From: Limnobacter sp. CACIAM 66H1
GTDB taxonomy: Bacteria > Pseudomonadota > Gammaproteobacteria > Burkholderiales > Burkholderiaceae_B
Reading direction: 5' to 3'
DNA: 52,086 bases
Assembly: GCF_001601825.1 (NCBI RefSeq)
Contig: NZ_LUJK01000019.1
Span: 1 to 52,086, forward strand
Part shown: piece after piece, positions 16,653 through 23,647 of the stretch
Layout: each line of letters begins with the position of its first letter
Position numbering within the stretch: position 1 is the stretch's first letter
Notes under the pieces: model-generated
The model's input: only the letters and a program-made list of their open reading frames with translations
Databases searched by the model: none
Told to the model about the DNA's origin: nothing
Translations under genes and position numbers: made by a program

Positions 16653-19064
16653 ATGAGTCAATTCAACAAACTAACAAAACTTGCTATTGCGGTTTCCGTC
16701 TGCATTGGCTTGGCATCCTGCGGTGGTGGTGGTGGTGGCGACAGTGGCGCCTCTTCTGGTGGTGGCGGTGGAACAGTCAGTGGTGCCGCGGCCAAGGGCA
16801 TTATTCAAAACGGCATCGTCACCTTGTTTGATGGTGCTGGCAACCCCCTGAGTACCACTTCAAGTCCAATTCGCACCAGCGCAAATGGAAGCTACACCGC
16901 CACCTTGAGCAATGCAAGTTATGCAGGTCCGTTATTTGTTGAAATCTCGGCTGACGGCATGACCACCATTCTGAACGAAGCCACTGGTAGTTCAGATCCA
17001 GCAACTGGATTGTCCGGCGCGTTGATCAAGTCAGTAGGCAACATCAACGCAGGGCAACCGGTCAGCATCAACGCCACACCATTTACCACGATTGTTGCCG
17101 AGCTAGTGGAGCGTTCCCGGGGCAGTGGCAACGCAACCCCTTTGCTTGTTCAACAAGCCCAAGTCGCAATCACAACCACCTTGGGTTTCAACCCCGTGGC
17201 AACCCAGCCCGTCAACCCTCGCGATCCTGCCAGTTCTGATGCAAGTCCAGAAGCAAAAAAACAGGCCATCTTGCTGGCTGCTTTGGCGCAACTCAGCCAA
17301 GGAATCGCTGATGCAGATTGCCCAGAAGGTACTACCCCCGCAGCCAAACAAATTTGTGCAGCCAACAGTCTGGCCATGGCCTATGCCGGCTCGAGCATTG
17401 CCAATAACCAGGCCACAGTTTCTATTGATGGCTCACAAATTCAAGGTTTTACCGCGGCTATTAGTGCCGTCTCAAGCAACCTGTCAATCAATCAGACTGG
17501 CGCTTCAGTGGACCCCGCAACCGACCCTGCCACTGACGAAATTCGCATGGCGGAAATGAACCCGAATGAACCTCAAACTACCGAGGTTGCAACACCTGAA
17601 CAAGGTTTCAATGAAACTGACGTGGCGGCGGTCAAAACCCTGTTCAACAACCTTCGGTCCAATGCAGCCGCACTGGATAACGATGAACTGAACGGTCCGC
17701 TGGAAACACAGCTTGCAGACTTCGCCGACAGCTTGACCAGCCAGGCGACCGGTCTTGAACCTGGCCCGTTTGATATCACCGAGGCTACGGCTTTGGGGAT
17801 CGAGCTTTGGGCGACTCACCAGTTCTTTGCAGCTCAGGATCCGCAATCCTCCCGTCCAGTTTTCTTTTCTGCCGGCTCTGCCGCTTGTCTGGTTCTGTCT
17901 TCTGTTACACGCGAGCCTGATCAACCAGTCACGGGTGTGGTGTTTGCAAATTCCTCGGGCGCAAACAATGCCAGATTTGTGGGTTGTACCGTATTTGGCG
18001 ACGGCGCAAGTCGCCCTCAGGGGAACGGTTTCCTTGAGTTGCGAAACTACGTATTGATGACACCAATTTCCGGTCAGGTAAACACCTTCAATGTGGAAAG
18101 CGACTCTCGTTTTTGTGACATAGATTTCAATCAGGACAATTCATTTGACCGTTGCCTGAGCCTTGAAGGAAACAGTCGCGTGATCGGCGGTGTTGCGGGT
18201 GCCAATGTGGCTACCGCCAGTGGCAACAAGACCTTTGACAGCATGGGTGTCACAACCAGCATGACCGGTTCATTTAGCGGAATGGTGGCTCCGCCCATTG
18301 AATTCGATTTTAGTGATTCAGCAAACCCGACTGCGGTTGAACTTGCTGACACGACAAACGTGGATATCGACTTTACCGCCACGTTCCCTGATGAAAACAG
18401 TGTGACCTTGGTCGGCAGCGGCTCATTCACTACCACTTCTGGTGATCAAACGATTACCACTGCTTTGAGCAGCTTCAATGTAAGTGGCACTGAGGATCCC
18501 GAGACCCAGGAGTCAACCGGTTCAATCGAAGCACAGGGGCGAATTGAGACTCAATTGGGTGCCTTGCGCGGCAGCTTCTCTGCTGACAGTGATGCAGGGG
18601 TTATCGAATTCACGGGTGCGGTTGATTTGAAAGAGGGTAGTGCTACAAATACCTTGTTTGAAGGTGCAGTAACCCTCAGTGGCACCCCAGCCACTGAAAC
18701 AATGCCCGCTACCGCCTCAGTTCTGTTCGACGGTACACTCAGCTTGCCCAATCGCCCGGAGCTGGTCGTAGAGCTTCAGGTGAACAACGCGGTGTTGAAC
18801 GACACCATGGATGGGGTTGACACTGGGTCACTGGCATTCACTTATCAGCAAAACGGCACCACCGTAATCCTGAACGCATCGAGAAATGAACAGGGTGTGG
18901 AATCCATTACCATCAGCTCACCCACCAGCATGGTTACAGTTGGGCCTTTCAATCCTGACTCTGCGCAAACCGTGGATGTGTTGCGAGATGGTCGACTGGC
19001 GGCACGCTACAATGTGGCCGATGCCCGGGTCAATTACGTGGATGGTACGTTTGAACAATTCTAA
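16653..19064 (+). CDS. Large surface lipoprotein of unknown function
   Basis: An 803-residue predicted lipoprotein: a basic N-terminus, hydrophobic core and lipobox LASC with Cys23, then a flexible run of Gly and Ser. Residues about 45-110 ('AAAKGIIQNGIVTLFD..GNPL') look like a carboxypeptidase-regulatory/Ig-like beta sandwich. Then comes an Ala/Gln-rich helical part (about 130-290) and a long Thr/Ser-rich beta-type region to the end. I recognise no catalytic motif. An AAGGT site precedes ATG 16653. Its last 23 bases overlap the next gene, and a textbook intrinsic terminator begins 13 bases after its stop. Role inferred only as an outer-membrane-attached structural protein. Confidence 0.7.
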   Translation: MSQFNKLTKLAIAVSVCIGLASCGGGGGGDSGASSGGGGGTVSGAAAKGIIQNGIVTLFDGAGNPLSTTSSPIRTSANGSYTATLSNASYAGPLFVEISADGMTTILNEATGSSDPATGLSGALIKSVGNINAGQPVSINATPFTTIVAELVERSRGSGNATPLLVQQAQVAITTTLGFNPVATQPVNPRDPASSDASPEAKKQAILLAALAQLSQGIADADCPEGTTPAAKQICAANSLAMAYAGSSIANNQATVSIDGSQIQGFTAAISAVSSNLSINQTGASVDPATDPATDEIRMAEMNPNEPQTTEVATPEQGFNETDVAAVKTLFNNLRSNAAALDNDELNGPLETQLADFADSLTSQATGLEPGPFDITEATALGIELWATHQFFAAQDPQSSRPVFFSAGSAACLVLSSVTREPDQPVTGVVFANSSGANNARFVGCTVFGDGASRPQGNGFLELRNYVLMTPISGQVNTFNVESDSRFCDIDFNQDNSFDRCLSLEGNSRVIGGVAGANVATASGNKTFDSMGVTTSMTGSFSGMVAPPIEFDFSDSANPTAVELADTTNVDIDFTATFPDENSVTLVGSGSFTTTSGDQTITTALSSFNVSGTEDPETQESTGSIEAQGRIETQLGALRGSFSADSDAGVIEFTGAVDLKEGSATNTLFEGAVTLSGTPATETMPATASVLFDGTLSLPNRPELVVELQVNNAVLNDTMDGVDTGSLAFTYQQNGTTVILNASRNEQGVESITISSPTSMVTVGPFNPDSAQTVDVLRDGRLAARYNVADARVNYVDGTFEQF

Positions 19065-20163
19065 TTTCAGTCTCAAGGCCGCCGCTGTGGCGGCGGCCTT
19101 TTTTATTTCAGATACGGCAAGCGCCAGCGATTCCGGGCAGTACCTGCTCGAATTCAGTGGTCAAACCTATCAGGCCAACAACGCAACATCAATTGATCAG
19201 TTCGACGATCAATTCACCGGGTACAGCCCGAGGCACAGCCAGGTATTTGGCCTGGCCGAGAATGCTGCATATCTGCAAGCCAGTCGAAATGGGTTTACCT
19301 TGCAAGCCTACAAGCGGCAGGAAATTTTTATCAATGCAGGCCGAGAAACCGGTCAGCTTTACGCCGACATTAATGCACGCGTACCACCCAACACCAATCG
19401 CGCTTACGCGGTTGATTTCGATGGTTATGGAATTGAACACACTGGTTTAAGTTTCGCCAAAACCCTGAAGTTGCCGAGTGTTGAAATATCACCTGCATTT
19501 CGGGTTTACAACATCGACCGGTACCGTGAAATTCAGGCCAAAGGCTTCGCTGCGGCTCGCGCAGATGGCAGCTACGACATCAATGTCAATACCGTAGAGC
19601 GCGACACGGAAGCCGATTTTCAGTTTCCTGCTGGTCCTAGCCCAAGTGGCCTGGGTTACGCCCTGGACCTGGCTGTGCAATGGCAGGCCAGGCCCAATAT
19701 TCTGATGTTTGCCAACGTTCAGAACCTGTTTAATAGCAATGAAATTGACAGTACCCCCACCACTGTCCAAACCATCAACAGCAATGTCAATCAGTTCGAT
19801 TCTGATGGTTTCCTCAACTACAACTCAGCCATTCAGGGGCGCAATAGTCGAGAAAACTACACCTTCAGCTTGCCTGTCAAAACCCACGTCGGTGGGCTTT
19901 ACTCCACAGGCGCAGCACATGTTCACCAACTCGGTTTTGATGTCAAACACATCAACGGCTTGGTTTTACCCCGCCTGAGCGCGGGCTGGCAGCAACCTTT
20001 CCCTTGGCTCGAAGGTATCACTGTGGGCTATGAAACGCACTTCGAGGCATTCGATTTTGCGGCGTACTTCAAACATGGCGGGGTCAAGTTTGGGTTCGAT
20101 ACCTTGAGTGATGAAAGTCGCCGAGTGGAGTACTTGCAGTTTTTTTGGCTGGCCAAGCTGTAA
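19042..20163 (+). CDS. Probable outer-membrane beta-barrel protein
   Basis: A 373-residue exported protein. Residues 1-28 form a clean signal peptide: basic start, h-region 'AAAVAAAFFI', cleavage after 'TASA'. The mature part alternates polar and hydrophobic residues, is rich in Tyr/Phe, and ends '..EYLQFFWLAKL', which fits a porin-like beta barrel, but no family is recognised. The frame is open from 18886, yet only ATG 19042 gives the signal peptide; this start lies within the 3' end of the lipoprotein gene (23-nt overlap). The hairpin and T-run of a strong terminator fall on codons 12-21. Likely works with the lipoprotein encoded upstream (inference from overlap). Confidence 0.65.
   Translation: MVRLNNSNFSLKAAAVAAAFFISDTASASDSGQYLLEFSGQTYQANNATSIDQFDDQFTGYSPRHSQVFGLAENAAYLQASRNGFTLQAYKRQEIFINAGRETGQLYADINARVPPNTNRAYAVDFDGYGIEHTGLSFAKTLKLPSVEISPAFRVYNIDRYREIQAKGFAAARADGSYDINVNTVERDTEADFQFPAGPSPSGLGYALDLAVQWQARPNILMFANVQNLFNSNEIDSTPTTVQTINSNVNQFDSDGFLNYNSAIQGRNSRENYTFSLPVKTHVGGLYSTGAAHVHQLGFDVKHINGLVLPRLSAGWQQPFPWLEGITVGYETHFEAFDFAAYFKHGGVKFGFDTLSDESRRVEYLQFFWLAKL
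19077..19104 (+). terminator. Canonical intrinsic terminator within a coding sequence
   Basis: Perfect 9-bp GC-only stem GGCCGCCGC (19077-19085) and GCGGCGGCC (19090-19098), TGTG loop, then six T (19099-19104). It is placed ideally to end the lipoprotein transcript (stop at 19062-19064) but sits inside the next gene, encoding its signal-peptide core. Confidence 0.85.
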
Positions 20164-20199: not shown

Positions 20200-21396
20200 T
20201 TGAATTGGTTTCAGCGAATCAACCCAGCCTGGTTTCTGGCAGGGGTGGCGTTTTTTTTGCCGATTAAGCCGGCGCCGGTGAATTTGCTGTTGGCTATTGC
20301 AATTCTATTTTCGTTAATTAATTCTGAATGTCGTCAAACTATTGGTCGTTTGTTCACTCGAGTAGAGTTAGTTCCCCTTTGGCTGCTTCTCGGGTATTTG
20401 GCACTCACGTTTTTTCATCCTGGCAATGATGAATCCAACTATTCAGAGTTCATTAGCAAGTATGGGCGACTGTCTCTAATTCCGTTTCTAGCCAGTATCC
20501 TGATCAATCCAGAAAACAGGCATCTGGTTGGTAAAGGATTCTTGGCTGGAATGGGGGTAGTACTGGCTTTGTCGTACGCTGTTTGGTTCGGGGTTGATCC
20601 GTCGTATTTCGGCGCCAAGGCAACCGACATGTATGCCATTCCAAGTAATCCAACCGTATTCAAATCGCACATCACACATAACTTCTTTTTGGTTGTCGCA
20701 ATTTATCTGTGGATCTTGTCTATCTTTCGCTCGGAAAAACTGCTTTCCAAATTGATCTTCGCTTTGCTAACCTTACTCGCGCTGGTTAATTTGTTTGGCA
20801 TGATCGATGGGCGTACAGGCTGGCTCGTTTTCATGGTCGTCCCTTTGTATTTTGGTTATCAAAAACTTGGGTTGAAAGGTTTCGTAATTGCTGGTGTTGC
20901 GTTTGTCGCTTTATTGGTTTCAGCGTATTTTTTAGTCGACAATGTACACGACCGTTTTTCCACCACTTGGTTGGAAGTTCAACAAGTGCTTCAGGATAAA
21001 CCTCAGCAGGAAACCAGTATTGGAGAACGCGTTATGTACTTGACCGCCAGTTGGTCTGCTTTCATCAACGCTCCTCTATTCGGTTACGGGTTGGGTGGAA
21101 TTCAGGCTGCTGTTCAACCATTTACCTCGGCGGCAGGTTGGCCGCCTTTTTACAACCCTCACAACCAGTTTCTAATGTTGGTGTTGCAGGGTGGTTTGCT
21201 GGCGCTTGTTTTGTATATTTGGTTCTTCGGTGTTGCGGTTTATCGAAGTAGTCAAAATACGTGGTCGAGTACTTACGTTCTACCCTTGATGATGTTCTAT
21301 CTGGTTGGAAACATGCTGAACTCATTCCACTTTGATTTTGCTGAAAGTGTGGGTTTTTTGATTTTATATTCAGCGTATCTGGGTAGTGCAAAATGA
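20200..21396 (+). CDS. O-antigen ligase/polymerase family membrane protein (Wzy_C)
   Basis: A 398-residue polytopic protein with about 11 hydrophobic segments and a large periplasmic loop around residues 245-300. 'GRTGWLVF' (about 208) and 'NPHNQFLMLVLQGG' (about 320) are the Arg and His motifs of the Wzy_C family, which holds both WaaL ligases (joining O-antigen to lipid A-core) and Wzy polymerases. It begins with TTG 20200 behind an AGGGG site. It heads the polysaccharide operon and its stop overlaps the next gene (ATGA at 21393). Ligase and polymerase cannot be separated from sequence alone. Confidence 0.82.
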   Translation: MNWFQRINPAWFLAGVAFFLPIKPAPVNLLLAIAILFSLINSECRQTIGRLFTRVELVPLWLLLGYLALTFFHPGNDESNYSEFISKYGRLSLIPFLASILINPENRHLVGKGFLAGMGVVLALSYAVWFGVDPSYFGAKATDMYAIPSNPTVFKSHITHNFFLVVAIYLWILSIFRSEKLLSKLIFALLTLLALVNLFGMIDGRTGWLVFMVVPLYFGYQKLGLKGFVIAGVAFVALLVSAYFLVDNVHDRFSTTWLEVQQVLQDKPQQETSIGERVMYLTASWSAFINAPLFGYGLGGIQAAVQPFTSAAGWPPFYNPHNQFLMLVLQGGLLALVLYIWFFGVAVYRSSQNTWSSTYVLPLMMFYLVGNMLNSFHFDFAESVGFLILYSAYLGSAK

Positions 21397-22421
21397 CCTT
21401 GTTTATTCATGCACCCAATGTGCATCAAGGGGGCGGCCGAACCTTGCTGAGCGCTCTTCTGGGGCAAGTGGATAAAACTGCTTGTTGCGTGTTGGACGAA
21501 CGCATGAATAAAAGTGATGCAGTTTTTAATCCTGCAACTCATTCGATCAAGCCAACACTGTTTGATCGACTTTGCGCTGAAATTTTTCTGGCAAAGAACG
21601 CGAAAGCCGATGATATTGTGCTGTGCTTTGGTAATTTGCCCCCTTTGTTTAAATCACGCGCCAAGGTGACTGTTTTTCTTCAAAACCGGTACATGTTTGG
21701 CACCCACGATTTTTCCCGATTCGCACTAGGTACCAAGTTGCGTTTATGGTTGGAGCGTTGGTGGTTCTGCACCCGTATGCGGTCGAACTATCAAATCATT
21801 GTTCAATCGGTAACTATGCAGCGTGAACTACAGTCTAGCCTCGGTTTTAAAGCAACGGTTTTACCTTTTCTTGCGGCTAATGATGAGCCAAGCATAATCA
21901 CTGCCGAGAGTTTTCAAAACAAAGAATTTGATTTCGTATACGTGTCTTCGGCCGAGCCACACAAAAACCATGCAGCACTTCTGGAAGCGTGGGTGTTGTT
22001 GGCTGAGCAGGGTATAAAGCCAACCCTTGCGCTTACCGTAAGCGGGCAAACTGCCGCGAATGTTGCCCAGTTAATTGAGCAGAAAAAAACTGCACATGGC
22101 TTGCAAATTACCAACTTTGGTACTTTAAAGCATGGCGATGTTCACAATCTATACCGCGCTTCAAACGCCTTGATCTTCCCCTCAAAGCTGGAATCATTTG
22201 GCCTTCCATTGCTTGAGGCCAGCAAGTTGGGTATGCCGGTTCTTGCACCAGAACTGGACTATGTTCGTGACGTAATCGAGCCTGCTCAAACTTTTGATCC
22301 AAATTCTCCTACTTCGATTGCCCGGGCTGTTTTGCGTCATCTCAATATACATTTGCCCAAAACGGAAACTGTTGATGCCAAGGCATTTCTGGCCCACGTC
22401 TTGCAGCAGGACAAGCAATGA
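21393..22421 (+). CDS. Family 4 glycosyltransferase
   Basis: A 342-residue GT-B glycosyltransferase. The C-terminal nucleotide-sugar half is clear: 'DFVYVSSAEPHKNHAALLEAW' (about 172), 'FGTLKHGDVHNLYRASNALIFPS' and the E-x7-E motif in 'ESFGLPLLEASKLG' (about 268). The N-terminal half is divergent. It overlaps both neighbours by 4 bases. It would add one sugar to the lipid-linked repeat on the cytoplasmic face of the membrane; donor and acceptor are unknown. Confidence 0.82.
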   Translation: MTLFIHAPNVHQGGGRTLLSALLGQVDKTACCVLDERMNKSDAVFNPATHSIKPTLFDRLCAEIFLAKNAKADDIVLCFGNLPPLFKSRAKVTVFLQNRYMFGTHDFSRFALGTKLRLWLERWWFCTRMRSNYQIIVQSVTMQRELQSSLGFKATVLPFLAANDEPSIITAESFQNKEFDFVYVSSAEPHKNHAALLEAWVLLAEQGIKPTLALTVSGQTAANVAQLIEQKKTAHGLQITNFGTLKHGDVHNLYRASNALIFPSKLESFGLPLLEASKLGMPVLAPELDYVRDVIEPAQTFDPNSPTSIARAVLRHLNIHLPKTETVDAKAFLAHVLQQDKQ

Positions 22422-23647
22422 GAATACTGATAGTCACCCAGTATTTTTGGCCTGAAAGTTTCATGATCAACGAAGTGGTCAAGGCCTTGGTTAAACAGGG
22501 CCATCAAGTAGTGGTTGCTACAGGTAAACCCAATTATCCCGACGGTAATATTTTCCCAGGCTACAGGGCCAATGGGGTTCAGCGAGAACTGTTTGGCGAA
22601 CAAACGCTCATAGTACGAGTTCCCACATGGCCGCGTAAACATGGTGGTGCCAAAAATCTTATCTTGAACTACCTGGTATTTGTTTTTGCGGGCATGTTCT
22701 GTTTGCCTTGGGCTTTGCGCGGTTTGAAGTTCGATGCAATATTGGTGTACGCACCTTCACCCATCACGCAAACTATTCCAGCAATTCTATTGAAGTGGAT
22801 TAAACGTGCGCCACTGGCTTTGTGGGTTCAAGACTTATGGCCGGAAAGTTTGCAGGCCACAGGTTTCGTACGCAATAAGAAAGCACTGACCGCCGTAGGT
22901 TATATGGTTTACTGGATTTACAAGGGTTGCGACCTGCTGCTGGCCCAGTCCAAGGCATTTATTGCACCATTGAATAAATATGCAAACCTTAGCAAGATTC
23001 GTTATCAACCCAACTCTTTTCCAGAACAGAGCACAGAAGCGCTTGTTGATGGGCCTGCGGCATTGCTAGCCACCCTGGAAAACAGATTCTGCGTAGTTTT
23101 TGCCGGAAACCTTGGGCAGGTTCAAGCACTGGATTGTGTTATCGATGCAGCTGAATTGTTGAAAGATCACCCTGATATTTCAATCGTACTTGTTGGAAGC
23201 GGCAGTAAAAGCGAATGGCTCGCCCAACAAAAACGGGAACGGGGCCTTGACAACCTTGAGTTACCTGGCCGGTTTCCAATGCAAACCATGCCTTCCATTT
23301 TCAATAGGGCGGGTGCGTTACTCGTCTCCTTAGAGGATGATCCTATTTTTGAACTAACGATCCCTAGTAAAGTTCAGGCTTATTTGGCTGCGGGGAAACC
23401 AGTATTGGCCAGTTTGAATGGCGAGGGTGCACAGGTCGTGCTTGAGGCCAAAGCTGGTCTAGCGTCGCCCGCCGGAGACAGTGCGGCGTTGGCAGCAAAT
23501 ATTTTGAAGATTAAGCAGATGCCGAGTGACGAACGCGATACATTGGGCCGCCAGGGGAAGTTGTATTTCCTTGAGTATTTTGAAACTGAAAGCCAAGCCC
23601 GTCACTTGGCTGAAACGCTCAGTGCCATGGGAAAGGGTAAAAAATGA
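22418..23647 (+). CDS. wbuB: WbuB-like glycosyltransferase (L-FucNAc/L-QuiNAc transferase)
   Basis: A 409-residue GT4 enzyme resembling WbuB. Typical elements are 'ILIVTQYFWPESFMINE' at the start, 'GKPNYPDGNIFPGY' (about 48), a membrane-associating segment 'YLVFVFAGMFCLPWAL' (about 86) and 'LWVQDLWPESLQATG' (about 136). WbuB proteins transfer N-acetyl-L-fucosamine in several O-antigens. It sits directly beside genes for a UDP-L-6-deoxy-HexNAc pathway, which supports that donor class. It overlaps the genes on both sides by four bases. Confidence 0.82.
   Translation: MRILIVTQYFWPESFMINEVVKALVKQGHQVVVATGKPNYPDGNIFPGYRANGVQRELFGEQTLIVRVPTWPRKHGGAKNLILNYLVFVFAGMFCLPWALRGLKFDAILVYAPSPITQTIPAILLKWIKRAPLALWVQDLWPESLQATGFVRNKKALTAVGYMVYWIYKGCDLLLAQSKAFIAPLNKYANLSKIRYQPNSFPEQSTEALVDGPAALLATLENRFCVVFAGNLGQVQALDCVIDAAELLKDHPDISIVLVGSGSKSEWLAQQKRERGLDNLELPGRFPMQTMPSIFNRAGALLVSLEDDPIFELTIPSKVQAYLAAGKPVLASLNGEGAQVVLEAKAGLASPAGDSAALAANILKIKQMPSDERDTLGRQGKLYFLEYFETESQARHLAETLSAMGKGKK

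What the first reader, a model, noticed from the sequence alone, without database searches (positions are those of the whole stretch)
19042..19104. A perfect intrinsic terminator encodes the signal-peptide core of the next gene
Sequence: a 9-bp all-GC stem with 4-nt loop and six T lies 13 bases after the lipoprotein stop, exactly where a terminator belongs, but the downstream gene already started at 19042 and reads the hairpin as K-A-A-A-V-A-A-A-F-F, the hydrophobic core of a clean signal peptide. Inference: most transcripts would end about 60 nt into the second gene unless ribosomes translating codons 1-12 melt the stem. That would make a translation-coupled attenuator setting the lipoprotein:barrel ratio, with one sequence serving RNA and protein.
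Basis: partly seen in the sequence, partly recalled or inferred. Interest (0 to 1): 0.75.

Follow-up and report, generated by a model that had tools for sequence, protein, structure and literature searches.

The report
Terminator doubling as signal-peptide code
Between a lipoprotein gene and its neighbour lies a predicted transcription stop signal that is kept across distant bacteria, and in the window and some other lineages the same bases also spell part of the neighbour protein's export signal.

Summary
In detail: a 9-bp all-GC stem with six T (19077-19104) lies inside the second ORF and encodes residues 12-21 of a clean signal peptide. It is not isolated. Homologous lipoprotein-barrel pairs occur in 20 genera. 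A strict terminator rule is met after the lipoprotein stop in 25 of 31 pairs (15 of 20 genera), against 3 of 287 other same-strand junctions. In 19 of 31 pairs the barrel is judged to start after the hairpin, as in Limnobacter alexandrii. In 12 of 31 (window clade plus nine genera, five of them clear) it starts before, so the terminator is signal-peptide code; the tree needs at least 4-5 switches. Synonymous recodings match these stems in 0-1.6%. Best reading: a conserved leaky intra-operon terminator keeping lipoprotein above barrel, absorbed into the barrel ORF in some lineages. It is not excluded for coding lineages. No RNA data were available, so termination itself is inferred.

The parts
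16653..19064 (+). lipoprotein gene, 803 aa, lipobox LASC, C-terminus VNYVDGTFEQF
   Evidence: the upstream proteins of 30 of 31 pairs fall into one blastp group (L097 does not); a lipobox pattern was found in 22 of 31, one of them doubtful, some loci being cut short
19042..20163 (+). barrel-like exported protein, 373 aa, start ATG 19042 (or TTG 19051), overlaps the lipoprotein end by 23 nt
   Evidence: no Pfam or NCBIfam match above cut-off; beta-rich but low-confidence model; that it is an outer-membrane barrel is not shown
19042..19125 (+). signal-peptide codons, MVRLNNSNFSLKAAAVAAAFFISDTASA; cleavage judged by eye
19075..19100 (+). terminator stem-loop; all-GC core 19077-19085 with 19090-19098, loop TGTG
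19099..19108 (+). U tract TTTTTTATTT, also read as Phe-Phe-Ile codons
19062..19064 (+). lipoprotein stop codon; stem begins 10 nt (12 for the GC core) after it

Best explanation
The hairpin is the lipoprotein gene's own intrinsic terminator, kept between the two genes of a lipoprotein-barrel operon. It ends most transcripts after the lipoprotein; the barrel is made from the read-through fraction, so lipoprotein exceeds barrel. In 16 of the 19 non-coding pairs the barrel start lies 13-27 nt after the stem (farther in L084, L087, L095). In the window clade, and separately in other lineages, the start lies before the stem, so the terminator became coding: GC stem as charged n-region or Ala core, T tract as Phe/Leu of the hydrophobic core. 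Shown: presence, position, conservation, pairing kept beyond the needs of the peptide, repeated switching. Inferred: that it terminates in the cell, that it leaks, that the ratio is what is selected.
For: Terminator within 114 nt of the lipoprotein stop in 25 of 31 pairs (strict) and 30 of 31 (lax), against 3 and 19 of 287 other same-strand junctions (by genus 15 of 20, Fisher p about 1e-18 as a rough guide). A first count with the stretch tied to the predicted start gave 14 of 22 against 5 of 311. Stop-to-stem distance median 24 nt in 29 of 31 measured. Upstream proteins homologous in 30 of 31. A barrel without the lipoprotein (L106) has no terminator. L. alexandrii and six rows of the same order, the window clade's nearest rows, are judged non-coding. 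Coding stems exceed synonymous recodings: 0-80 of 5000 in 11 loci. Two of ten stem pairs changed on both sides, 40 of 40 cells paired. In coding lineages every mRNA that holds the barrel start must cross the hairpin (sequence logic).
Against: No RNA data. Six pairs miss the strict rule: L084 and L087 (loops over 10 nt), L094 and L097 (few GC pairs), L095 and L096 (weak T tract). Covariation rests on 4 rows and 32 of 500 shuffles reach it. Sequence homology of the alexandrii and window terminators is not shown: score 34, while an unrelated terminator reaches 37. Start sites are judged, not measured; 8 of 19 non-coding rows have an in-frame start before the stem. Gain or loss is clear only within Limnobacter. 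An internal promoter for the barrel cannot be excluded, nor is the barrel fold shown.
Confidence: 0.7

Rival explanations
1. Translation-coupled attenuator: the ribosome that ends the lipoprotein re-initiates at the barrel start and melts the stem in time, so that polymerase passes only when translation follows closely.
For: In coding lineages the start lies 7-16 nt after the stop, or overlaps it by 23 nt, and in 6 of 10 genera 15-19 nt before the stem. Precedents: in S. gallolyticus pil1, translation of a leader peptide through a terminator raises transcription (PMC3894217, passages); close ribosomes prevent intrinsic terminators in E. coli (PMC5021804, abstract and passages).
Against: The hairpin is kept where no in-frame start precedes the stem, 11 of 31 pairs, and where the judged start follows it, 19 of 31. 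Terminators in the first 100 nt of ORFs are reported at close to 100% efficiency (PMC7858274, passages). The start-stem spacing follows in part from the stop-stem spacing and is not separate evidence.
Confidence: 0.17
2. Chance: an Ala-rich signal peptide coded with GCC and GCG makes a hairpin by itself.
For: 2414 of 20000 synonymous recodings of this peptide hold some terminator-like site.
Against: Only 58 of 5000 are as strong; the same junction has a strict terminator in 15 of 20 genera, with quite different stems and peptides.
Confidence: 0.03
3. The hairpin is an mRNA-stabilising or processing element between the two cistrons, not a terminator.
For: Internal hairpins can also affect the stability of upstream transcripts (PMC9045158, abstract and passages).
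Against: A T tract of 5 or more in 8 follows the stem in the 25 of 31 pairs that meet the strict rule.
Confidence: 0.1

Closest known systems
Internal terminators of ABC-importer operons in Clostridia (PMC9045158; abstract and passages)
   Same: Hairpin straight after the gene of an abundant extracellular partner, leaky, sets its excess over the membrane partner
   Different: Reported there in intergenic regions; here the hairpin is, in several lineages, code for the next protein's signal peptide
nlpD1-penA of Burkholderia pseudomallei (PMC6045580; abstract and outline only)
   Same: The upstream gene's terminator serves as attenuator of the downstream gene; NlpD1 being a lipoprotein is recalled
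   Different: Different genes; nothing in the abstract about overlap with signal-peptide codons
E. coli frd-ampC attenuator (recalled, no paper read)
   Same: Terminator of one operon is the attenuator of the next gene
   Different: Lies in the leader, not in codons
pil1 leader attenuation in Streptococcus gallolyticus (PMC3894217; passages)
   Same: Reading frame running up to or through a terminator
   Different: Separate leader peptide, repeat-length switch
Intrinsic terminators inside E. coli genes such as narY and rsxC (PMC5021804; passages)
   Same: Terminator signal within a coding sequence, held open by close ribosomes; 49 of 255 genes examined there had a predicted one
   Different: No junction of two genes, no signal peptide, no conservation described in the passages seen
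DUF560/Slam (TXISS) lipoprotein exporters (PMC8406197; abstract)
   Same: Lipoprotein and outer-membrane partner
   Different: No DUF560 match in the barrels scanned

Membership tests
intrinsic (Rho-independent) terminator | GC-rich stem, short loop, U tract directly after | tested here: met
intrinsic (Rho-independent) terminator | releases RNA at the U tract | not testable with these tools
   no RNA data held
intra-operon ratio-setting terminator | sits between genes of one conserved pair, beyond chance | tested here: met
   25 of 31 against 3 of 287; 14 of 22 against 5 of 311 by an earlier rule
intra-operon ratio-setting terminator | partial read-through, upstream RNA in excess | not testable with these tools
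   needs RNA-seq
ribosome-mediated attenuator | translated frame of the regulated gene runs into the terminator in all members | tested here: not met
   judged non-coding in 19 of 31 pairs, 11 of them with no in-frame start before the stem
ribosome-mediated attenuator | alternative antiterminator structure or ribosome-dependent melting | not tested
   no antiterminator search was made
DUF560/Slam exporters | Pfam DUF560 domain | tested here: not met
   no match in P0001 at E up to 1, nor in 4 related barrels at E up to 0.1
DUF5723 family | score above Pfam's cut-off 26.8 bits | tested here: not met
   24.3 and 18.9 bits in two of four relatives, none in P0001

The most novel reading that the evidence does not exclude
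Terminators are a recurrent raw material for signal peptides: the stem gives a charged or small-residue start, the T tract gives Phe/Leu. Once absorbed, one sequence is held by two selections, and in those lineages re-initiation by the lipoprotein ribosome makes barrel transcription depend on lipoprotein translation.
Probability: 0.2. Interest if true: 0.85.

Novelty: new variant of a known kind. Interest (0 to 1): 0.7.

Why it matters
Ratio-setting terminators between genes of an operon are known, and so are terminator signals inside genes. Here a terminator position is kept across a gene family while the coding role of the same bases switches on and off. That gives a natural series for asking how ribosomes, polymerase and secretion signals share one stretch of RNA, and how a secretion signal can arise from non-coding RNA structure. 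It also points to a lipoprotein-barrel pair for which neither Pfam nor NCBIfam names the window's two proteins.

Tried and rejected
Structure prediction of barrel and lipoprotein gave mean pLDDT 31 and 41, too poor for a fold search, so none was run. Solved-structure searches gave no match and one at E 0.84. Rfam gave four matches, all below gathering scores. Viral contigs gave no relative. A MAFFT alignment of the Limnobacter junctions put alexandrii out of register; I compared by hand and by local alignment. Alignment A6 misplaced L102 by a codon; it was left out of A7, so the pair count covers 4 of those 5 rows. A start after the hairpin was rejected for the window: none gives a signal peptide. 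Four coding rows (L091, L104, L093, L099) stay doubtful because GTG or TTG codons follow the stem; without them the tree still needs 4 changes. L096 has an ATG inside the stem and is a weak non-coding row. Not in the pair table: L070 and L082 (partial matches), L050 and L051 (genus of L106; no lipoprotein seen in the stretch printed).

Full report
What is there. The window's nearest named relatives are Limnobacter records; that this lies in Burkholderiales and in Gammaproteobacteria sensu GTDB is recalled. The lipoprotein gene ends at 19064. The barrel gene opens at ATG 19042, which falls inside the lipoprotein's conserved Asp-Gly codons, or at TTG 19051. Between 19075 and 19104 lie an 11-bp stem (9 GC), a 4-nt loop and six T, folding at -23.4 kcal/mol. 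They encode KAAAVAAAFF, the core of a clean signal peptide.

Close relatives. A MAG (L005) and Limnobacter sp. P1 (L006) keep start, frame and hairpin; the one change in the stem turns a C-G into a U-G pair and Ala into Val, and both carry the same change. L. alexandrii (L007), 66% identical in the barrel and 48% in the lipoprotein, has another terminator 24 nt after the lipoprotein stop, and its barrel starts 18 nt after the stem with a signal peptide of its own. The terminator is shared in place, its coding use is not; sequence homology of the two hairpins is not shown.

Distant relatives. The single protein hit 4 of 60 relatives and 3 of 268 genomes of the family. Profiles found the barrel in 5 and 7 of 399 genomes of the order, 16 of 369 of the class in each of two searches, apparently of the same draw, and 3 of 5, 10 of 24 and 1 of 3 in three smaller orders. 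I tabled 32 barrels; 31 have a large protein gene of this kind directly upstream, and 30 of these 31 fall into one blastp group, L097 not. L106 has the barrel alone and no terminator.

Enrichment. With one rule for all (7 bp, 6 GC, loop 3-8, 5 T of 8, within 114 nt after a stop), 25 of 31 pairs have a terminator, against 3 of 287 other same-strand junctions and 25 of 639 other gene ends in the same stretches; with a lax rule 30 of 31 against 19 of 287 and 60 of 639. An earlier count tied to predicted starts gave 14 of 22 against 5 of 311. By genus, my grouping, 15 of 20. Gene calls for the controls were longest-ORF calls, and 20 of the 48 control stretches plus the window come from this genome.

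Coding or not. In 12 of 31 pairs the start lies before the stem: window, L006, L109, L089, L091, L093, L098, L099, L100, L101, L102, L104; in 19 it is judged to lie after. For the window clade, L089, L098, L100, L101 and L102 no later start gives a plausible signal peptide; the other four are doubtful. Of the 19, eight have an in-frame start codon before the stem as well (L063, L065, L067, L105, L107, L103, L086, L092), eleven have none. On a tree of the barrels without the signal region the state needs at least 5 changes, 4 without the doubtful rows. Within Limnobacter the direction is clear: alexandrii and six rows of the same order are non-coding. Genome G891 holds two copies, one of each kind.

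Selection on pairing. Synonymous recodings as strong as the real stem: window 58, L109 80, L089 9, L091 0, L104 1, L093 3, L098 3, L099 19, L100 2, L101 4, L102 10, each of 5000. In four related coding rows 40 of 40 stem cells pair and two of ten pairs changed on both sides; between L100 and L101 these changes alter amino acids in both arms (Asn/Lys with Val/Leu; Arg/Gln with Pro/Leu). A fifth row, L102, has U-A where these have G-C or A-U, read by eye. The shuffle control is weak with four rows: 32 of 500 reach it.

How it works. Shown: a conserved hairpin with T tract a short way after the lipoprotein stop, under selection as RNA. Inferred: partial termination, barrel from read-through. The scan lists no promoter-like site on the + strand between 15000 and 21341, weak evidence, since it finds fewer sites than shuffles do. 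In coding lineages any mRNA with the barrel start must cross the hairpin. Translation melting is possible but not needed: the hairpin is also kept where nothing in frame precedes it, and a review reports near-complete termination in the first 100 nt of ORFs (PMC7858274, passages). On the other side stands the finding that close ribosomes prevent intrinsic terminators (PMC5021804).

What is known. Internal terminators that set partner ratios are described for Clostridial ABC importers (PMC9045158, abstract and passages), a terminator acting as the next gene's attenuator for nlpD1-penA (PMC6045580, abstract), and translation through a terminator for pil1 (PMC3894217, passages). Seven paper searches touched this question; in the rows listed (20 of 400 papers, all rows in the others, none) I saw no title or abstract start about a terminator that doubles as signal-peptide code. 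Searches asked other questions. The library lacks most subscription papers.

Noticed in passing
L092:4929-7502 (+) and L094:9244-11940 (-): A second large lipoprotein-like protein lies directly upstream of the paired lipoprotein in two genomes, suggesting lipoprotein-lipoprotein-barrel sets.
   Followed up: partly
L106, L050, L051 (G730, G958, G856): Barrel homologue without the lipoprotein partner; in L106 the upstream gene looks like Mpl (recalled) and no terminator is found.
   Followed up: partly
L063, L065, L067, L103, L105, L107: Rows judged non-coding whose barrel frame is open through the terminator, with TTG, GTG or ATG 2-6 nt before the stem: a shift of start would make the terminator coding.
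   Followed up: partly
window 21129-21146: A weaker terminator-like hairpin (6 bp, TTTTT) inside the next membrane-protein gene, 20200-21396.
   Followed up: no
window 20200-23647 and L032:1-1437: O-antigen-ligase-like and glycosyltransferase-like genes (names recalled, not searched) beside the pair in two genomes; the neighbours printed for 19 loci showed no recurrent third gene by eye.
   Followed up: partly
L092:9874-9960: In the second copy of G891 two hairpins stand in series between lipoprotein and barrel.
   Followed up: no
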